Source of the DNA: Solirubrobacterales bacterium
GTDB lineage: Bacteria > Actinomycetota > Thermoleophilia > Solirubrobacterales > 70-9
Length of the DNA stretch: 64,000 nt
Assembly (NCBI GenBank): GCA_020438355.1
Contig: JAGQUT010000002.1
Location: 62,001-126,000, forward strand
Direction: 5' to 3'
Shown here: positions 4,475 through 30,194 of the stretch, one piece after another
Position numbering within the stretch: the first letter of the stretch is position 1
Layout of the letters: each line of letters starts with the position of its first letter
Made by a program: the position numbers and the translations under genes
The notes under the pieces: model-generated
Seen by the model: only the letters and a program-made list of their open reading frames with translations
Told to the model about the DNA's origin: nothing
Database searches by the model: none

Positions 4475-5132
4475 CGGACAAGGCCTCCAGCGAGGTGATC
4501 CGGGCCTTGAAGAAGGGTTCGAACTTCTCGCGGACCCAGCCGGCGGTGAGTTGAACCGGGATCTGCTGATGCGCCATCTCCCCGAATCTTTCGAGCCGGC
4601 AGCGGAATGGCACCAGTGATCCGGGCCCCTTCTTCTCCTTCAACCAGCGCATCGCCTCGACCTCAACGGGAAGACCATCTCCGTCCAGCCTGATGGTGAC
4701 CTCTTCCGCCAGTGGCACGCCCGGGCGCCGGAAACGGATTTCCGTCTCGGAAGAGGCGGCCCACTCGGCACCGGTACCCGGGAGCAGCGTCGCGGGCACC
4801 ATGGTGGACTCCATTACGGCCCTTGTTGCGGCTGATCTGCAGGCGTCCTGACCTGTATCAGCGAACAGTTGGCGCCCGGCAATGCGCCCGACCATCCCTC
4901 CCTTCGAACCGGTGAACGAGTCGGTGACTTCGAGAATGCCGAATCGGTCAGAAGGCACCCGCGCGCGCCAGATGAAGCTGCTCCCGTCAAGTTCCTGCCG
5001 GGCCTCGAAGGGGAGCCACATGCCGACCTTGATTCGACCCTTCATCCCGATCGACCAGCTGCTGGCCGGAGGGCACCCGTCGAGGACGGATTGCCCCAGG
5101 TATCGACTCACCGGGTCAGGGAGATCAGCCAT
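4467..5132 (-). CDS. DUF6544 family protein, unknown function
   Basis: A 221-residue protein that matches my recollection of the DUF6544 family. It begins with a PVSRYLGQSV stretch, then GRIKVGMWLPFEARQ (about 32-46), an alternating hydrophobic beta-rich middle, and RSAATRAVMESTMVPATLLPG near 99-119 followed by W residues. There is no signal peptide or membrane segment. It sits between rpmA and obgE, after an intrinsic terminator, and has its own TATATT box, so it heads a DUF6544-obgE(-proB-proA-nadD) transcript. The biochemical role of the family is not known to me. The association with obgE may be only positional. Confidence 0.75.
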   Translation of the reverse strand: MADLPDPVSRYLGQSVLDGCPPASSWSIGMKGRIKVGMWLPFEARQELDGSSFIWRARVPSDRFGILEVTDSFTGSKGGMVGRIAGRQLFADTGQDACRSAATRAVMESTMVPATLLPGTGAEWAASSETEIRFRRPGVPLAEEVTIRLDGDGLPVEVEAMRWLKEKKGPGSLVPFRCRLERFGEMAHQQIPVQLTAGWVREKFEPFFKARITSLEALSVP

Positions 5133-5144
5133 CGCCGAAATATA
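5133..5144 (-). promoter_or_regulatory. putative leaderless promoter of the DUF6544-obgE unit (-10 TATATT)
   Basis: TATATT (5144-5139) is the best -10 box in the window and ends exactly six bases before ATG 5132. A TTTTCA lies 17 bases further upstream as a weak -35. It follows immediately after the rpmA terminator, so it marks the start of a new transcription unit. Confidence 0.6.
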
Positions 5145-5162
5145 GGTACCGCCCCTGCAAAT

Positions 5163-5191
5163 GAAAAGGGCCCGCCGTGGCGGGCCCTTTC
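5163..5191 (-). terminator. intrinsic terminator after rplU-rpmA
   Basis: AAAGGGCCCGCC and GGCGGGCCCTTT form a perfect 12-bp stem around a 3-base loop, followed on the minus strand by a short T-rich run. It lies 15 bases downstream of the rpmA stop. Confidence 0.85.
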
Positions 5192-5205
5192 AGAGTCTGG
5201 TTCAG

Positions 5206-5460
5206 CTACTCCGCGGGAGTGACCGAGATGGTCCGGCCGCGGCGGCCGGGCTTGAACTCGACCGTGCCGGCGCGGGTGGCGAAGATGGTGTGGTCGCGGC
5301 CGAGGCCGGTCCCGTCGCCGGGCCAGAACCTGGTTCCGCGCTGGCGGACGATGATCTCGCCGCCGGAAACTTCCTGTCCGGCGAAGACCTTCACCCCGAG
5401 CATCTTCGGGTTCGAGTCACGACCGTTCCTCGAGGAGCCGAGTCCCTTCTTATGCGCCAT
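5206..5460 (-). CDS. rpmA: 50S ribosomal protein L27
   Basis: Ribosomal protein whose N-terminus reaches the peptidyl-transferase centre. It has 84 residues, beginning [16 protein letters not shown] and with the core motif [16 protein letters not shown], typical of L27. There is no N-terminal extension of the type cleaved by Prp protease in Firmicutes. The ATG overlaps the rplU stop by 11 bases, so translation is coupled and L21 and L27 should be made in equal amounts. Confidence 0.97.
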
Positions 5461-5992
5461 CGGTGTCCTCCTTCTTGGCCGCCGGCTTCTTCGCGGCAGG
5501 CTTCTTGGCGGCCGGCTTCTTCGCGGCGGCCTTGGTTTCAGTCTTGGTCTCGGCCTTGGCGGCGGGCTTCTTGGCCGCCGGCTTCTTGGCCGGGGTCTTC
5601 TTCTCGGCGGTCTCTGCCTTGGCCTCGGCCTTCGGCTTCTCTTCCGCCTTGTCGGCGGCAGCCTTCTTCGGCGCGGCCTTCTTCTTCGCGCCGCCGAGTG
5701 AGGTCACTTCCAGTTTGGTCAGCTCGGCGCGATGGCCGGCCCTGCGGCTGTAGCCCTTCTTCGGCTTGTACTTGAAGACCTTGATCTTGTCTCCGCGCAG
5801 GTGCTCGGTGACCTTGGCCTCGATCTTGACCTTCTCGAGGCCCTTGGCGTCTACAACGACGTCGTCACCGCTGAACATGACCGGACGGAGCGCGACCTTG
5901 TCGCCCTCTTCGGCCTTCAGGCGGTCAACGACCAGCACGGTGCCTTCCTCGACCCGGTACTGCTTGCCACCACTTTCAACTACCGCGTACAT
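5450..5992 (-). CDS. rplU: 50S ribosomal protein L21 with long Lys/Ala/Pro tail
   Basis: Residues 1-100 are a normal L21 beta-barrel ([14 protein letters not shown], then [18 protein letters not shown] near 71-88). The protein continues for about 80 residues of low-complexity sequence built from AKKPAAKK and KAE-type units, almost doubling the usual length of about 103. The tail is in frame, ends in DTDGA, and its last codons overlap the rpmA start, so it is not a frameshift artefact. Similar lysine/alanine/proline repeats occur in nucleoid proteins such as mycobacterial HupB (family knowledge), suggesting nucleic-acid binding. That role is inference. Confidence 0.95.
5475..5605 (-). repeat. 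short in-frame repeats coding (A)KKPA units in the L21 tail
   Basis: Units of about 15 bases of the form GCCGGCTTCTTGGCG (plus-strand view), with C/G wobble changes, recur in two blocks (about 5475-5535 and 5566-5605). They encode the [11 protein letters not shown] segments. Tandem units like this can expand or contract by slippage. Confidence 0.7.
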
Positions 5993-26823: not shown

Positions 26824-26953
26824 TGCAGATTCCTCCTTGGAGTTACGTGGTGGGGAAAGCCCCTCTTGCGCCATTACACACGAACCGACGGATACCTCCT
26901 GACGGGAAATACGGTTCACCCGGTTTGAATGACCCTTCTGCTGCCGCTGCGAC

Positions 26954-26965
26954 TATCTTGAATCC
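26954..26965 (+). promoter_or_regulatory. putative leaderless promoter of the DUF2252 gene (-10 TATCTT)
   Basis: TATCTT (26954-26959) ends six bases before ATG 26966. There is no Shine-Dalgarno, which agrees with a leaderless message. Confidence 0.5.
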
Positions 26966-28381
26966 ATGAACAGCACGACCGGTCCCTCGACCCTCACACA
27001 GGACTCCCTGAAACTGACCGGGAAGGCACTTCGGAAGAAGGCCCCCCGGGAAAGTCACGCCGAATGGACCCCCGCCCCCGGGCGCGATCCGGTCGGAATC
27101 CTGCTCGAGCAGGGCGAAAGTCGTGTTCAGGAGCTGCTGCCGATCCGTTACGGAAGGATGTCGGCTTCGCCGTTCGCCTTCTACCGGGGTGGTGCAGCGA
27201 TCATGGCCGCGGATCTGGCCCCCACTCCGGCTACCGGTGTCCGCGTGCAGGCTTGTGGCGATGCCCACATCTCGAATTTCGGAGGCTATGCAGCACCCGA
27301 CCGCCGCCTGGTTTTCGATCTGAACGACTTCGACGAGACCCTCCCGGCACCCTGGGAGTGGGATGTGAAGAGGATGGCTGCGAGCGTCGTAATCGCAGCG
27401 CGGCACAACGGTGCGAGCAAGAAAGTGGCCCGAAAGATCGTGATCGCTGCGATGGCCGAGTACCGGGACGCCATGAGGCGTCTGGCAGACATGAGCTACC
27501 TGGACGTCTGGTACACGCGCCTGGACGTCGAGCAGATTGCGGAAATGCTTGAGGGAGCACATGGCGCCGACGCGGGCGTAAACCTTCGCAAGGACATAGC
27601 GAAGGCTTCCCGCAAGGACAGCAACCGGGCCACCAGGAAGCTGACCGACGAAAGCAGCGGCGAGCCCCGCTTCGCAAGCAGGCCCCCCTTGCTGGTTCCA
27701 GCCCGGGAGCTTGCTGCAGGCCTCGGCGTATCTGACGCCGATGCGGTTCGGGATCTGATTCGCTCCTTGATGCACCAGTACGCCGAGACTCTGCCACCGG
27801 ACCGGCAGCACCTGTTCGGCCACTACCAGTTGGTGGACCTCGCCCGAAAGGTCGTCGGAGTCGGCTCGGTCGGGACCCGGGCATGGGTGATGCTCTTCCT
27901 CTCCAATCGCCGGAAGGACCCGCTCGTCCTGCAGGTAAAGGAGGCCCAGAACTCGGTGCTTGCTCCATACGCAGGTGCCTCGAAGTTCAGGCTGCAGGGT
28001 CGCCGCGTGGTCGAGGGCCAGCGTTTGACCCAGGCCGCCTCGGACCTCTTCCTCGGCTGGATTCGTGCCGAGGCACCGGATGGCGTCACCCGCGACTTTT
28101 ACGTCCGTCAGCTCTGGGATGGAAAGATGTCCATTGACATCGACTCCCTTGGGGAAACCGGGCTCACCGAGTTCGTTCGGGTCTGCGCAGGAGCCCTGGC
28201 CCTCGCTCATGCGAGGACCGGCGATCGGGTTGCGATCTCGCAGTACCTCGGGAAGAAAGACACTTTCGATCAGGCGATTGCCGAGTTCAGCATTCGCTAC
28301 GCGAAGCAGAACCAGGAGGACTTCGACGCCTTCACCGCCGAGATAGAAGCGGGCAAAATAGAAGCGACACCGGGCATCTAG
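26966..28381 (+). CDS. DUF2252 family protein
   Basis: It has 471 residues with the family's hallmark blocks: RYGRMSASPFAFYRGGA (about 61-77), CGDAHISNFGGY (about 97-108) and LNDFDETLPAPWEWDVKRMAAS (about 119-140). GDxHxxNFG and DFDxT resemble the catalytic loop of protein-kinase-like/aminoglycoside phosphotransferase folds, so a small-molecule kinase activity has been suspected. This is inference and the family is uncharacterised to my knowledge. It converges with the cyclase gene, which ends five bases away. Confidence 0.9.
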   Translation: MNSTTGPSTLTQDSLKLTGKALRKKAPRESHAEWTPAPGRDPVGILLEQGESRVQELLPIRYGRMSASPFAFYRGGAAIMAADLAPTPATGVRVQACGDAHISNFGGYAAPDRRLVFDLNDFDETLPAPWEWDVKRMAASVVIAARHNGASKKVARKIVIAAMAEYRDAMRRLADMSYLDVWYTRLDVEQIAEMLEGAHGADAGVNLRKDIAKASRKDSNRATRKLTDESSGEPRFASRPPLLVPARELAAGLGVSDADAVRDLIRSLMHQYAETLPPDRQHLFGHYQLVDLARKVVGVGSVGTRAWVMLFLSNRRKDPLVLQVKEAQNSVLAPYAGASKFRLQGRRVVEGQRLTQAASDLFLGWIRAEAPDGVTRDFYVRQLWDGKMSIDIDSLGETGLTEFVRVCAGALALAHARTGDRVAISQYLGKKDTFDQAIAEFSIRYAKQNQEDFDAFTAEIEAGKIEATPGI

Positions 28382-28386
28382 GCAAC

Positions 28387-29148
28387 TCAGTCGAGGATCG
28401 CGACTACCCGGGCCGGCGCGGCGCTGCCTCCGACCAGTTTGAGGGGGAAGCAGGCCACGGTGAAGCCGGTCGACGGCAACTGGTCGAGGTTCGCGAGCCT
28501 TTCGATCTGCGAGTAGGGGATGTCGGCCTGATGGGCTTCCCAGAAGATGCCGGCCTCTCCCTTCTCCTTTGCTTCCTCCGCCTGCATCCAGAGGGGGCGG
28601 TCCCAGCCCCAGGCGTCGATACCCATCACGCGGATACCGCGGTCGTAGAGCCAGCGGGTGGCTTCAGCGCTGACTCCGGGCCCGTGCGCCATGTACTCGA
28701 CGGTGCCGAGGTACTGGTCGCAACCCGTCCTGACCAGACAGATGTCCCTTTCTTCTATCTGGTGGCCGATCCTTCCGAGCTCACTCTCGATGTCCGAGAC
28801 TCCGATCACCTCTCCGTCACCCCGTTCATGGAAGTCGAGCAGAAACCCCGGTCGGTAGAACCAGTCGAGAGGAAGCTGGTCGATCGTCTCGGCGGGACGG
28901 CCCTGGATGGTCGAGTTGTAGTGCCAGGGAGCGTCCACGTGAGTTGAGCTGTGGGTGCCGAGCAGGGTGAACGTGTCGACGGCCCACCCTTCTCCGTCAC
29001 GCAGCAGTTCGGAGCCGACGCCGAAGAGGGCTTCGATCTGCTTCGCGCCCTCTTCATGGGGGGTGAATTCCACGTCGACGCGCACAACATCAGGCGCACC
29101 TTCGGGGCCGGGCTCGATCGGTGCCGAAATATCGATCAATCTGCTCAT
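28387..29148 (-). CDS. cyclase-family (kynurenine formamidase-like) metal hydrolase
   Basis: It has 253 residues. The metal-binding signature GTHSSTHVDAPWHY lies near 64-77 (HxGTHxDxPxH type), and the C-terminal CFPLKLVGGSAAPARVVAIL is standard for this family, which includes KynB and isatin hydrolase. It probably opens an amide or cyclic ester, but the exact substrate is unknown because no tryptophan-catabolism genes are nearby. It shares a 23-base divergent promoter with the NAD(P)-dependent reductase gene. Confidence 0.87.
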   Translation of the reverse strand: MSRLIDISAPIEPGPEGAPDVVRVDVEFTPHEEGAKQIEALFGVGSELLRDGEGWAVDTFTLLGTHSSTHVDAPWHYNSTIQGRPAETIDQLPLDWFYRPGFLLDFHERGDGEVIGVSDIESELGRIGHQIEERDICLVRTGCDQYLGTVEYMAHGPGVSAEATRWLYDRGIRVMGIDAWGWDRPLWMQAEEAKEKGEAGIFWEAHQADIPYSQIERLANLDQLPSTGFTVACFPLKLVGGSAAPARVVAILD

Positions 29149-29171
29149 GGCAGGCAGACTAGAGTGCCACC
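29149..29171. promoter_or_regulatory. divergent promoter with overlapping -10 boxes
   Basis: The whole intergenic gap is 23 bases. Leftward TAGTCT (29161-29156) ends seven bases before the cyclase ATG. Rightward TAGAGT (29160-29165) ends six bases before the reductase ATG. The two hexamers share the TA at 29160-29161. Both genes would be leaderless, and the -35 regions would lie inside each other's coding sequence. Confidence 0.55.
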
Positions 29172-30194
29172 ATGACCATTAGTGAGGGTTCGAAGGGGAC
29201 GGTCCTGGTGACCGGGGGCTCCGGCTTCCTTGGCGGTCGGGCGATCGTCGATCTGCTCGAGAAGGGTTACGACGTACGGACGACAGTCCGGGACAAGTCG
29301 AAGGGCCCGAGAATCGAGGAGAACGTTTCAGACGAGATCGGCAGGCCAGCGGGGATCGAGTTCTTCGAGGCGGACCTTTCCGCCGACGATGGCTGGAGCG
29401 AAGCCGTCGACGGCTGCCGTTACGTGCTCCACATCGCCTCGCCCTTCCCTCCCGCGAAACCGAAGGATCCTCAGGAGCTGATCGGGCCGGCGGTCGCAGG
29501 GGCGACCAGGGTGATCGGCGCCGCGCTGGATGCCGGTGCCGAGCGCATCGTCATGACTTCTTCAGTCGCTGCAATCAGAGGCAGCGGGGAACCGAAAGGG
29601 TCCCCCTACACCGAGGATGACTGGACCGACGTTGAAACGGTCGACGCATACCCGCAGTCAAAGACCCTGGCCGAAGACGCCGCCTGGGACCTGGTCGATC
29701 AAAGGGGCGAGCGGGAAAAGCTTGCGGTGATCAACCCGAGCGCGATTCTCGGTCCGGTGATGCCGGATGACGATTCCTTTTCTCTTGAGGCGATCCAGAG
29801 GATGCTCGACGGAATGCCGGGAGCCCCGAAGATCGGGTTCAGCTGGGTCGATGTCCGGGATGTGTCCGCGGCCCACCTCGCGGCGATGGAGAAGCCCGAG
29901 GCTGGCGGGCAGAGGTTCATCGCTTCCGGACCTTTTCTCTGGTTGAGCGAGGTCGCAGAGATTCTTCGCCGGGAGGAACCGGAACTGGCAAAGAAGGCAC
30001 CGACGCGGACCGTGCCGAAACCGGTTCTGAGGGTCATGGCCCTCTTCGATCCAGGCATACGGGCGCTGCTTGGCAACATCGGAATCCGATCCGATTTCGA
30101 CATCACCAGGGCGAAGGAGGTCCTCGGCATCGAGGCCCGTCCGGTCGAGCAGACGATCGTCGACTGCGCCAGGTCGCTGGCAGCGAGGAGCTGA
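29172..30194 (+). CDS. NAD(P)-dependent epimerase/dihydroflavonol-4-reductase-like
   Basis: It has 340 residues of the extended short-chain dehydrogenase type. The Rossmann motif VTGGSGFLGGR is at 13-23, VRTTVRDKSK near 35-44 suggests NADP preference, and catalytic TSS...YPQSK sits near 121-162 (the lysine of YxxxK). It resembles dihydroflavonol reductase/cinnamoyl-CoA reductase-like enzymes. The real substrate is open. It ends four bases before the TTG of the trypsin-like gene. Confidence 0.88.
   Translation: MTISEGSKGTVLVTGGSGFLGGRAIVDLLEKGYDVRTTVRDKSKGPRIEENVSDEIGRPAGIEFFEADLSADDGWSEAVDGCRYVLHIASPFPPAKPKDPQELIGPAVAGATRVIGAALDAGAERIVMTSSVAAIRGSGEPKGSPYTEDDWTDVETVDAYPQSKTLAEDAAWDLVDQRGEREKLAVINPSAILGPVMPDDDSFSLEAIQRMLDGMPGAPKIGFSWVDVRDVSAAHLAAMEKPEAGGQRFIASGPFLWLSEVAEILRREEPELAKKAPTRTVPKPVLRVMALFDPGIRALLGNIGIRSDFDITRAKEVLGIEARPVEQTIVDCARSLAARS

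What the first reader, a model, noticed from the sequence alone, without database searches (positions are those of the whole stretch)
29149..29171. 23-bp divergent promoter with two -10 boxes sharing the same TA
Leftward TAGTCT and rightward TAGAGT overlap by two bases (29160-29161) and are each correctly spaced (7 and 6) from the start codons of two divergent genes, a cyclase and an NAD(P)-dependent reductase. One RNA polymerase footprint would have to choose direction, giving coupled or mutually exclusive transcription. Symmetric bidirectional -10 elements have been described in bacteria, but driving two leaderless genes from a 23-bp gap is remarkably compact.
Basis: partly seen in the sequence, partly recalled or inferred. 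Interest (0 to 1): 0.65.

Follow-up and report, generated by a model that had tools for sequence, protein, structure and literature searches.

The report
Two-way promoter between leaderless genes
A 23-base gap between two oppositely pointing bacterial genes holds two overlapping promoter boxes that share the same TA, is kept by seven related species, and is a conserved, compact case of the already known bidirectional promoter.

Summary
Leftward TAGTCT (29161-29156) and rightward TAGAGT (29160-29165) share the TA at 29160-29161 and lie 7 and 6 nt from the two start codons. These are the two commonest spacings of leaderless TANNNT boxes in this genus (106 and 61 genes against about 3.5 per position background). 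Eight same-genus genomes hold the cyclase/reductase pair; seven keep the shared TA in a 22-23 bp gap. In 29155-29165, 9 of 11 columns are invariant, against 15 of 96 fourfold-degenerate sites (P about 1e-5), and the two variable columns are inner positions of TANNNT. The eighth (G008) has a 47-bp gap without it. Elsewhere both genes usually carry a leaderless box of their own. So this is very probably a real, selected bidirectional promoter for two leaderless mRNAs, made by fusing two boxes. The inference of mutually exclusive or coupled transcription is weak: no -35 or extended -10 is recognisable, and at E. coli bidirectional promoters basal transcription is too low for competition (PMC12825309). 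Kind and precedents are known (bidirectional promoters; divergent leaderless pair Rv1129c/Rv1130 in M. tuberculosis, PMC3898074). Start sites are inferred, not measured.

The parts
28387..29148 (-). cyclase-family (isatin-hydrolase-like metal-dependent hydrolase) gene, 253 aa, predicted leaderless
   Evidence: Pfam PF04199 E 9.5e-35; PDB relatives isatin hydrolase
29149..29171 (.). 23-bp intergenic gap holding the whole bidirectional core promoter
   Evidence: sequence; 23 bp in 6 species and 22 bp in one
29155..29165 (.). conserved core CAGNCTAGANT (9 of 11 columns invariant in 7 species)
29156..29161 (-). leftward -10 box TAGTCT (TANNNT), 7 nt from ATG
29160..29165 (+). rightward -10 box TAGAGT (TANNNT), 6 nt from ATG
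29160..29161 (.). TA shared by both boxes (-12/-11 of each)
29172..30194 (+). NAD(P)-dependent epimerase/reductase (dihydroflavonol-reductase-like) gene, 340 aa, predicted leaderless
   Evidence: Pfam PF01370 E 1.6e-26; best PDB match dihydroflavonol-4-reductase

Best explanation
The gap is a bidirectional core promoter for the housekeeping sigma factor. RNA polymerase can sit on it in either orientation, because TA reads the same on both strands and serves as -12/-11 for each direction. Transcription starts at or one base before the A of each ATG, giving two leaderless mRNAs. It arose when two genes that each already had their own leaderless TANNNT promoter came to lie head to head and the two boxes fused into one, and the fused form has been kept by selection in at least seven species. 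Shown: the sequence, the spacings, the conservation, the leaderless boxes of the separate orthologues. Inferred: that both strands are transcribed, the exact start sites, and that the two directions are independent at normal (low) activity, with interference only if one direction were strongly activated.
For: Leaderless grammar of this genus: among 1165 called genes of G001, TANNNT ends 6 nt before the start in 106 and 7 nt in 61, against 3.5 per position background; the same peaks in 352 genes of the own genome (34 and 18 against 1.3). Both boxes of the finding use exactly these spacings. Conservation: 7 of 8 genomes with the pair keep shared-TA boxes; 9/11 core columns invariant against 15/96 fourfold-degenerate sites of the adjacent gene, P about 1e-5; the two variable columns are inner positions of TANNNT. 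Outside this clade, cyclase orthologues keep a TATAGT/TATGGT/TAGGCT box 6 nt from ATG or GTG (L010-L017, L021), and many reductase orthologues keep TAGGGT/TAGGCT/TAGATT boxes about 6-8 nt from their ATG (L200, L201, L203, L208, L211-L214). Geometry: predicted starts 23-24 bp apart, inside the 7-25 bp that defines bidirectional promoters (PMC10268837). TANNNT about 12 bp upstream of the start codon marks leaderless genes in Actinobacteria (PMC3160421).
Against: No transcript data exist here for this organism (a metagenome-assembled genome), so transcription in either direction is unproven. Nothing like a -35 (best 2-3 of 6 matches to TTGACA, at poor spacing) or a TGN extended -10 is found, so either direction could be very weak. 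The shared arrangement (-12/-11) is not the commonest one (-11/-7, starts 18 bp apart). Five invariant core columns (29155, 29157, 29159, 29162, 29163) are not required by TANNNT, so something more than two minimal boxes may be under selection. G008 keeps the pair with a 47-bp gap and without the shared TA.
Confidence: 0.82

Rival explanations
1. The conserved core is mainly the operator of a transcription factor (a dyad such as GGGCAGNCTAGNCTGCCC) that represses or activates both genes, and its resemblance to two -10 boxes is a by-product.
For: In G004 and G013 the gap is a nearly perfect 18-bp dyad, and invariant columns go beyond what TANNNT needs.
Against: The dyad arms are not conserved (AATCAG...CTCTCC in G010, TTTCAG...CTGCTG in G009). 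The dyad is absent elsewhere in 1.26 Mb of G001 and G000, so there is no regulon in the part examined, and no regulator gene is adjacent. Spacing to both ATGs follows the leaderless rule, which an operator does not need. It does not exclude the promoter: both could be true.
Confidence: 0.1
2. Only one of the two boxes is a working promoter; the other gene is transcribed from elsewhere or hardly at all, and the second box is fortuitous.
For: Boxes are weak (TAGTCT has T at the fourth position, seen in only 4% of the leaderless boxes with spacing 6 and 13% with spacing 7), and TANNNT is a low-information motif.
Against: All four box-defining positions are invariant in 7 species, the spacing is right on both sides, and both genes have leaderless boxes in many relatives where they are not neighbours. 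An upstream promoter for either gene would have to lie inside the opposite coding sequence.
Confidence: 0.1
3. The arrangement acts as a switch: binding of polymerase one way excludes the other, so the two genes are expressed alternately.
For: The footprints necessarily overlap; in E. coli strong activation of one direction can repress the other, and EcoRV and CfrBI restriction-modification genes use overlapping promoters for coupled control (PMC12825309; PMC5333194).
Against: For five E. coli bidirectional promoters basal activity was too low for competition (PMC12825309). No activator site or regulator gene is apparent here; the genes are two metabolic enzymes, not a regulator and its target. 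Divergent leaderless Rv1129c and Rv1130 rise together, not alternately (PMC3898074).
Confidence: 0.08

Closest known systems
Bidirectional promoters with symmetric -10 elements (Warman et al. 2021, as cited in PMC12825309 and PMC10268837)
   Same: Overlapping -10 elements on opposite strands, predicted starts 23-24 bp apart (definition 7-25 bp), placed between divergent genes and giving two mRNAs as in 24% of E. coli cases
   Different: Shares T-12/A-11 (the palindromic TA) instead of the commonest reciprocal -11/-7 pairing with starts 18 bp apart; both mRNAs predicted leaderless; transcription not measured
Leaderless genes with TANNNT about 12 bp upstream of the start codon in Actinobacteria (PMC3160421; PMC3898074)
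   Same: Box, spacing, absence of a Shine-Dalgarno sequence in the gap and no conserved -35
   Different: Two such promoters fused on opposite strands
Divergent leaderless pair prpD (Rv1130) / Rv1129c of M. tuberculosis (PMC3898074)
   Same: Two divergent genes both with mapped leaderless mRNAs; closely juxtaposed divergent promoters are called common in that transcriptome
   Different: Whether the two -10 boxes share bases was not examined here for that pair; one partner is a regulator
tsaE / DUF2520 promoter of the same genus (G001:C11:41313, G000:C111)
   Same: Same shared-TA geometry GGCAGCCTATAAT, conserved in the same clade
   Different: Rightward RNA has a conserved leader of about 100 nt rather than being leaderless

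Membership tests
Bidirectional promoter (shared -10) | -10 elements on opposite strands with key positions overlapping | tested here: met
   TA 29160-29161 is -12/-11 of both boxes, conserved in 7 species
Bidirectional promoter (shared -10) | divergent transcription starts 7-25 bp apart | not testable with these tools
   Predicted 23-24 bp from the leaderless spacing; no RNA data
Bidirectional promoter (shared -10) | transcription in both directions from one short fragment | not testable with these tools
   needs in vitro transcription or reporters
Leaderless promoter of Actinobacteria | TANNNT at the genome's modal distance from the start codon | tested here: met
   distances 6 and 7, the two modes in G001 and G000
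Leaderless promoter of Actinobacteria | start codon is the most upstream possible and has no Shine-Dalgarno sequence | tested here: met
   first start in each open frame; no SD in the 23 bp by reading
Leaderless promoter of Actinobacteria | transcription start at the start codon | not testable with these tools
   needs 5'-end mapping
Transcription-factor operator (dyad) | dyad symmetry conserved between species | tested here: not met
   outer arms vary, clear only in G004 and G013
Transcription-factor operator (dyad) | same site in front of other genes | tested here: not met
   no other copy in 1.26 Mb of two genomes; pattern with both start codons in only 6 of 232 genomes of the order, always this locus
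Mutually exclusive switch | change of one direction alters the other | not testable with these tools
   literature on five E. coli promoters speaks against it at basal level

The most novel reading that the evidence does not exclude
The shared-TA core is held in a nearly fixed form because the relative strength of the two directions is itself selected: the two variable positions (29158 and 29164, one in each box) change together in all seven species (A with G, or C with C), as if a weakening of one box were matched in the other, making this a ratio-setting two-way promoter for two leaderless genes.
Probability: 0.07. Interest if true: 0.6.

Novelty: new member of a known kind. Interest (0 to 1): 0.3.

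Why it matters
It is a clean, selected example of how short a functional divergent promoter can be: two leaderless genes need only 23 bp between their start codons. Comparative evidence alone, without RNA data, shows that a shared -10 element between two protein genes is kept over extensive synonymous change (third-position identity about 0.55-0.73), so it is not just noise. It would make a convenient minimal construct for testing whether polymerase orientation competes at weak promoters in high-GC Actinobacteria.

Tried and rejected
A regulon with the same dyad: no other copy in the sequence examined. A -35 or extended -10 hidden in the opposite coding sequences: at most 3 of 6 matches, not conserved. 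Recent common descent as the reason for conservation: rejected, since only 16% of fourfold sites are invariant in the same seven species. Counting the changes of the two co-varying core positions on a tree: the tree of the eight species is almost a star, so the number of events cannot be decided. The other-genus genome G024 showed no double-box pair within 60 bp in 400 kb (65 divergent pairs, weaker leaderless peaks), so recurrence was only seen within this genus. Warman et al. 2021 itself is not held; its definitions were taken from two later papers of the same group. A Rfam search of the window gave nothing.

Full report
Observation. The gap between the two start codons reads CAT-GGCAGGCAGACTAGAGTGCCACC-ATG at 29149-29171. 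The rightward box TAGAGT occupies 29160-29165 with 6 nt to the ATG at 29172; the leftward box TAGTCT occupies 29161-29156 with 7 nt to the ATG at 29148. The two hexamers share 29160-29161 (TA, its own reverse complement). Both ATGs are the first start codon in their frames. The leftward gene is a PF04199 cyclase-family protein related to isatin hydrolases, the rightward gene an NAD(P)-dependent epimerase/reductase nearest to dihydroflavonol reductases. The window is a piece of an incomplete draft genome (G000, 2.6 Mb, 133 contigs); its closest relatives are metagenome-assembled genomes labelled Solirubrobacterales, Actinomycetota.

Is the grammar real? I wrote a simple gene caller and applied it to 1.28 Mb of the same-genus genome G001 and 0.38 Mb of the own genome. 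TANNNT ends exactly 6 or 7 nt before the start codon in 106 and 61 of 1165 genes in G001, against a background of 3.5 per position; in the own genome 34 and 18 of 352 against 1.3. This is the leaderless signature described for Actinobacteria (PMC3160421; M. tuberculosis, PMC3898074). The boxes of the finding use precisely the two modal spacings. No -35 signal stands out in the aligned leaderless promoters of this genus, and none is recognisable for either direction here, as in M. tuberculosis, where no conserved -35 was found.

Conservation. In the family searched (50 genomes), eight genomes, all of the same genus, carry the cyclase and the reductase head to head. Seven have a gap of 23 bp (22 in G013) with both boxes and the shared TA: G000, G001, G004, G006, G009, G010, G013. 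Column by column, 9 of 11 positions of 29155-29165 are invariant; the two variable ones (29158, 29164) are inner positions of the leftward and the rightward TANNNT respectively. In the same seven species only 15 of 96 fourfold-degenerate sites of the cyclase gene are invariant, so P for at least 8 of 10 in the box region is about 1e-5. The eighth, G008, has a 47-bp gap, TACACT 6 nt from the reductase ATG and only a degenerate CATACT before the cyclase; it is not placed as an outgroup in the trees, so the shared form was probably lost there. A strict pattern with both start codons occurs in 6 of 232 genomes of the order, always at this locus (the 22-bp version of G013 does not fit the pattern).

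Origin. In the other species of the genus, where the reductase is elsewhere or absent, the cyclase still has TATAGT, TATGGT or TAGGCT 6 nt before its ATG or GTG (L010-L017, L021). Many of the reductase orthologues in other genomes likewise have TAGGGT, TAGGCT, TAGATT and similar boxes about 6-8 nt before the ATG; in some the box is further off or not evident. The simplest history is that two leaderless genes came to lie head to head and their boxes fused. Sharing TA costs only four fixed bases instead of six, so it is the easiest close arrangement to evolve (inference); a random 23-bp gap fulfils it in 0.5% of cases.

How unusual is it? In G001, 178 divergent pairs were seen, 39% of the divergent genes carry a leaderless-type box (139 of 356), and 13 box pairs lie within 60-bp gaps; two of these share the TA: this locus and tsaE/DUF2520. 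The second is conserved as GGCAGCCTATAAT in all seven shared-TA species, and also in G011 (in G010 the codon after it is TTG). It differs in that its rightward RNA has a conserved leader of about 100 nt. In 400 kb of another genus (G024) no such pair was found. So the arrangement is uncommon but recurrent in this genus.

Mechanism. Best explanation: a bidirectional core promoter; polymerase with the housekeeping sigma factor binds in either orientation and starts two leaderless mRNAs about 23-24 bp apart. That fits the published definition of bidirectional promoters (starts 7-25 bp apart with overlapping -10 elements, PMC10268837), although the commonest form pairs -11 with -7 at 18 bp. The step from overlapping boxes to coupled or mutually exclusive expression is not supported: five E. 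coli promoters of this kind show no competition at basal activity, only when one direction is strongly activated (PMC12825309). Here the boxes are weak by composition and lack -35 and extended -10 elements, so independence is the expected default. Close precedents are divergent leaderless Rv1129c/Rv1130, induced together in starvation (PMC3898074), and for true competition the overlapping promoters of EcoRV and CfrBI (PMC5333194).

Rival: an operator. In G004 and G013 the gap is close to an 18-bp dyad, and some invariant columns are not demanded by TANNNT. But the dyad arms vary in other species and the motif does not recur. A regulator binding there in addition cannot be excluded.

Verdict. 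Observation confirmed; promoter reading well supported by comparative evidence; exclusivity reading weak. A new member of a known kind, interest about 0.3.

Noticed in passing
G000:C111 about 4990-5560; G001:C11 41311-41435; loci L261-L267, L279-L290 (outside the window): The tsaE/DUF2520 divergent locus has a second conserved shared-TA promoter (GGCAGCCTATAAT). Its rightward RNA carries a leader of about 102-105 nt with two predicted hairpins and the nearly invariant block CCGTCTGGTATCRCCGAAAGGGAACTGGAACGG in 12 genomes of the genus; the leader is not consistently in frame with DUF2520 (stop at codon 12 in G000, other frame in G006) and matches no Rfam family at E up to 1. A candidate undescribed structured leader RNA.
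   Followed up: partly
29158 and 29164: The two variable core positions change together in all seven species (A with G in G000, G001, G006; C with C in G004, G009, G010, G013), although they are not dyad partners; the tree is too star-like to count events.
   Followed up: partly
G001:C2:65396 (locus L224): A divergent gap with boxes overlapping in the TANNNTA form (TAGCGT/TACGCT), the arrangement closest to the commonest E. coli bidirectional promoter, but at an uncertain TTG start.
   Followed up: no
26843-28210 (-): A 455-aa open frame runs antisense through the DUF2252 gene (26966-28381 +); probably only a by-product of high G+C codon use.
   Followed up: no
[quoted passage not shown]
   Followed up: no
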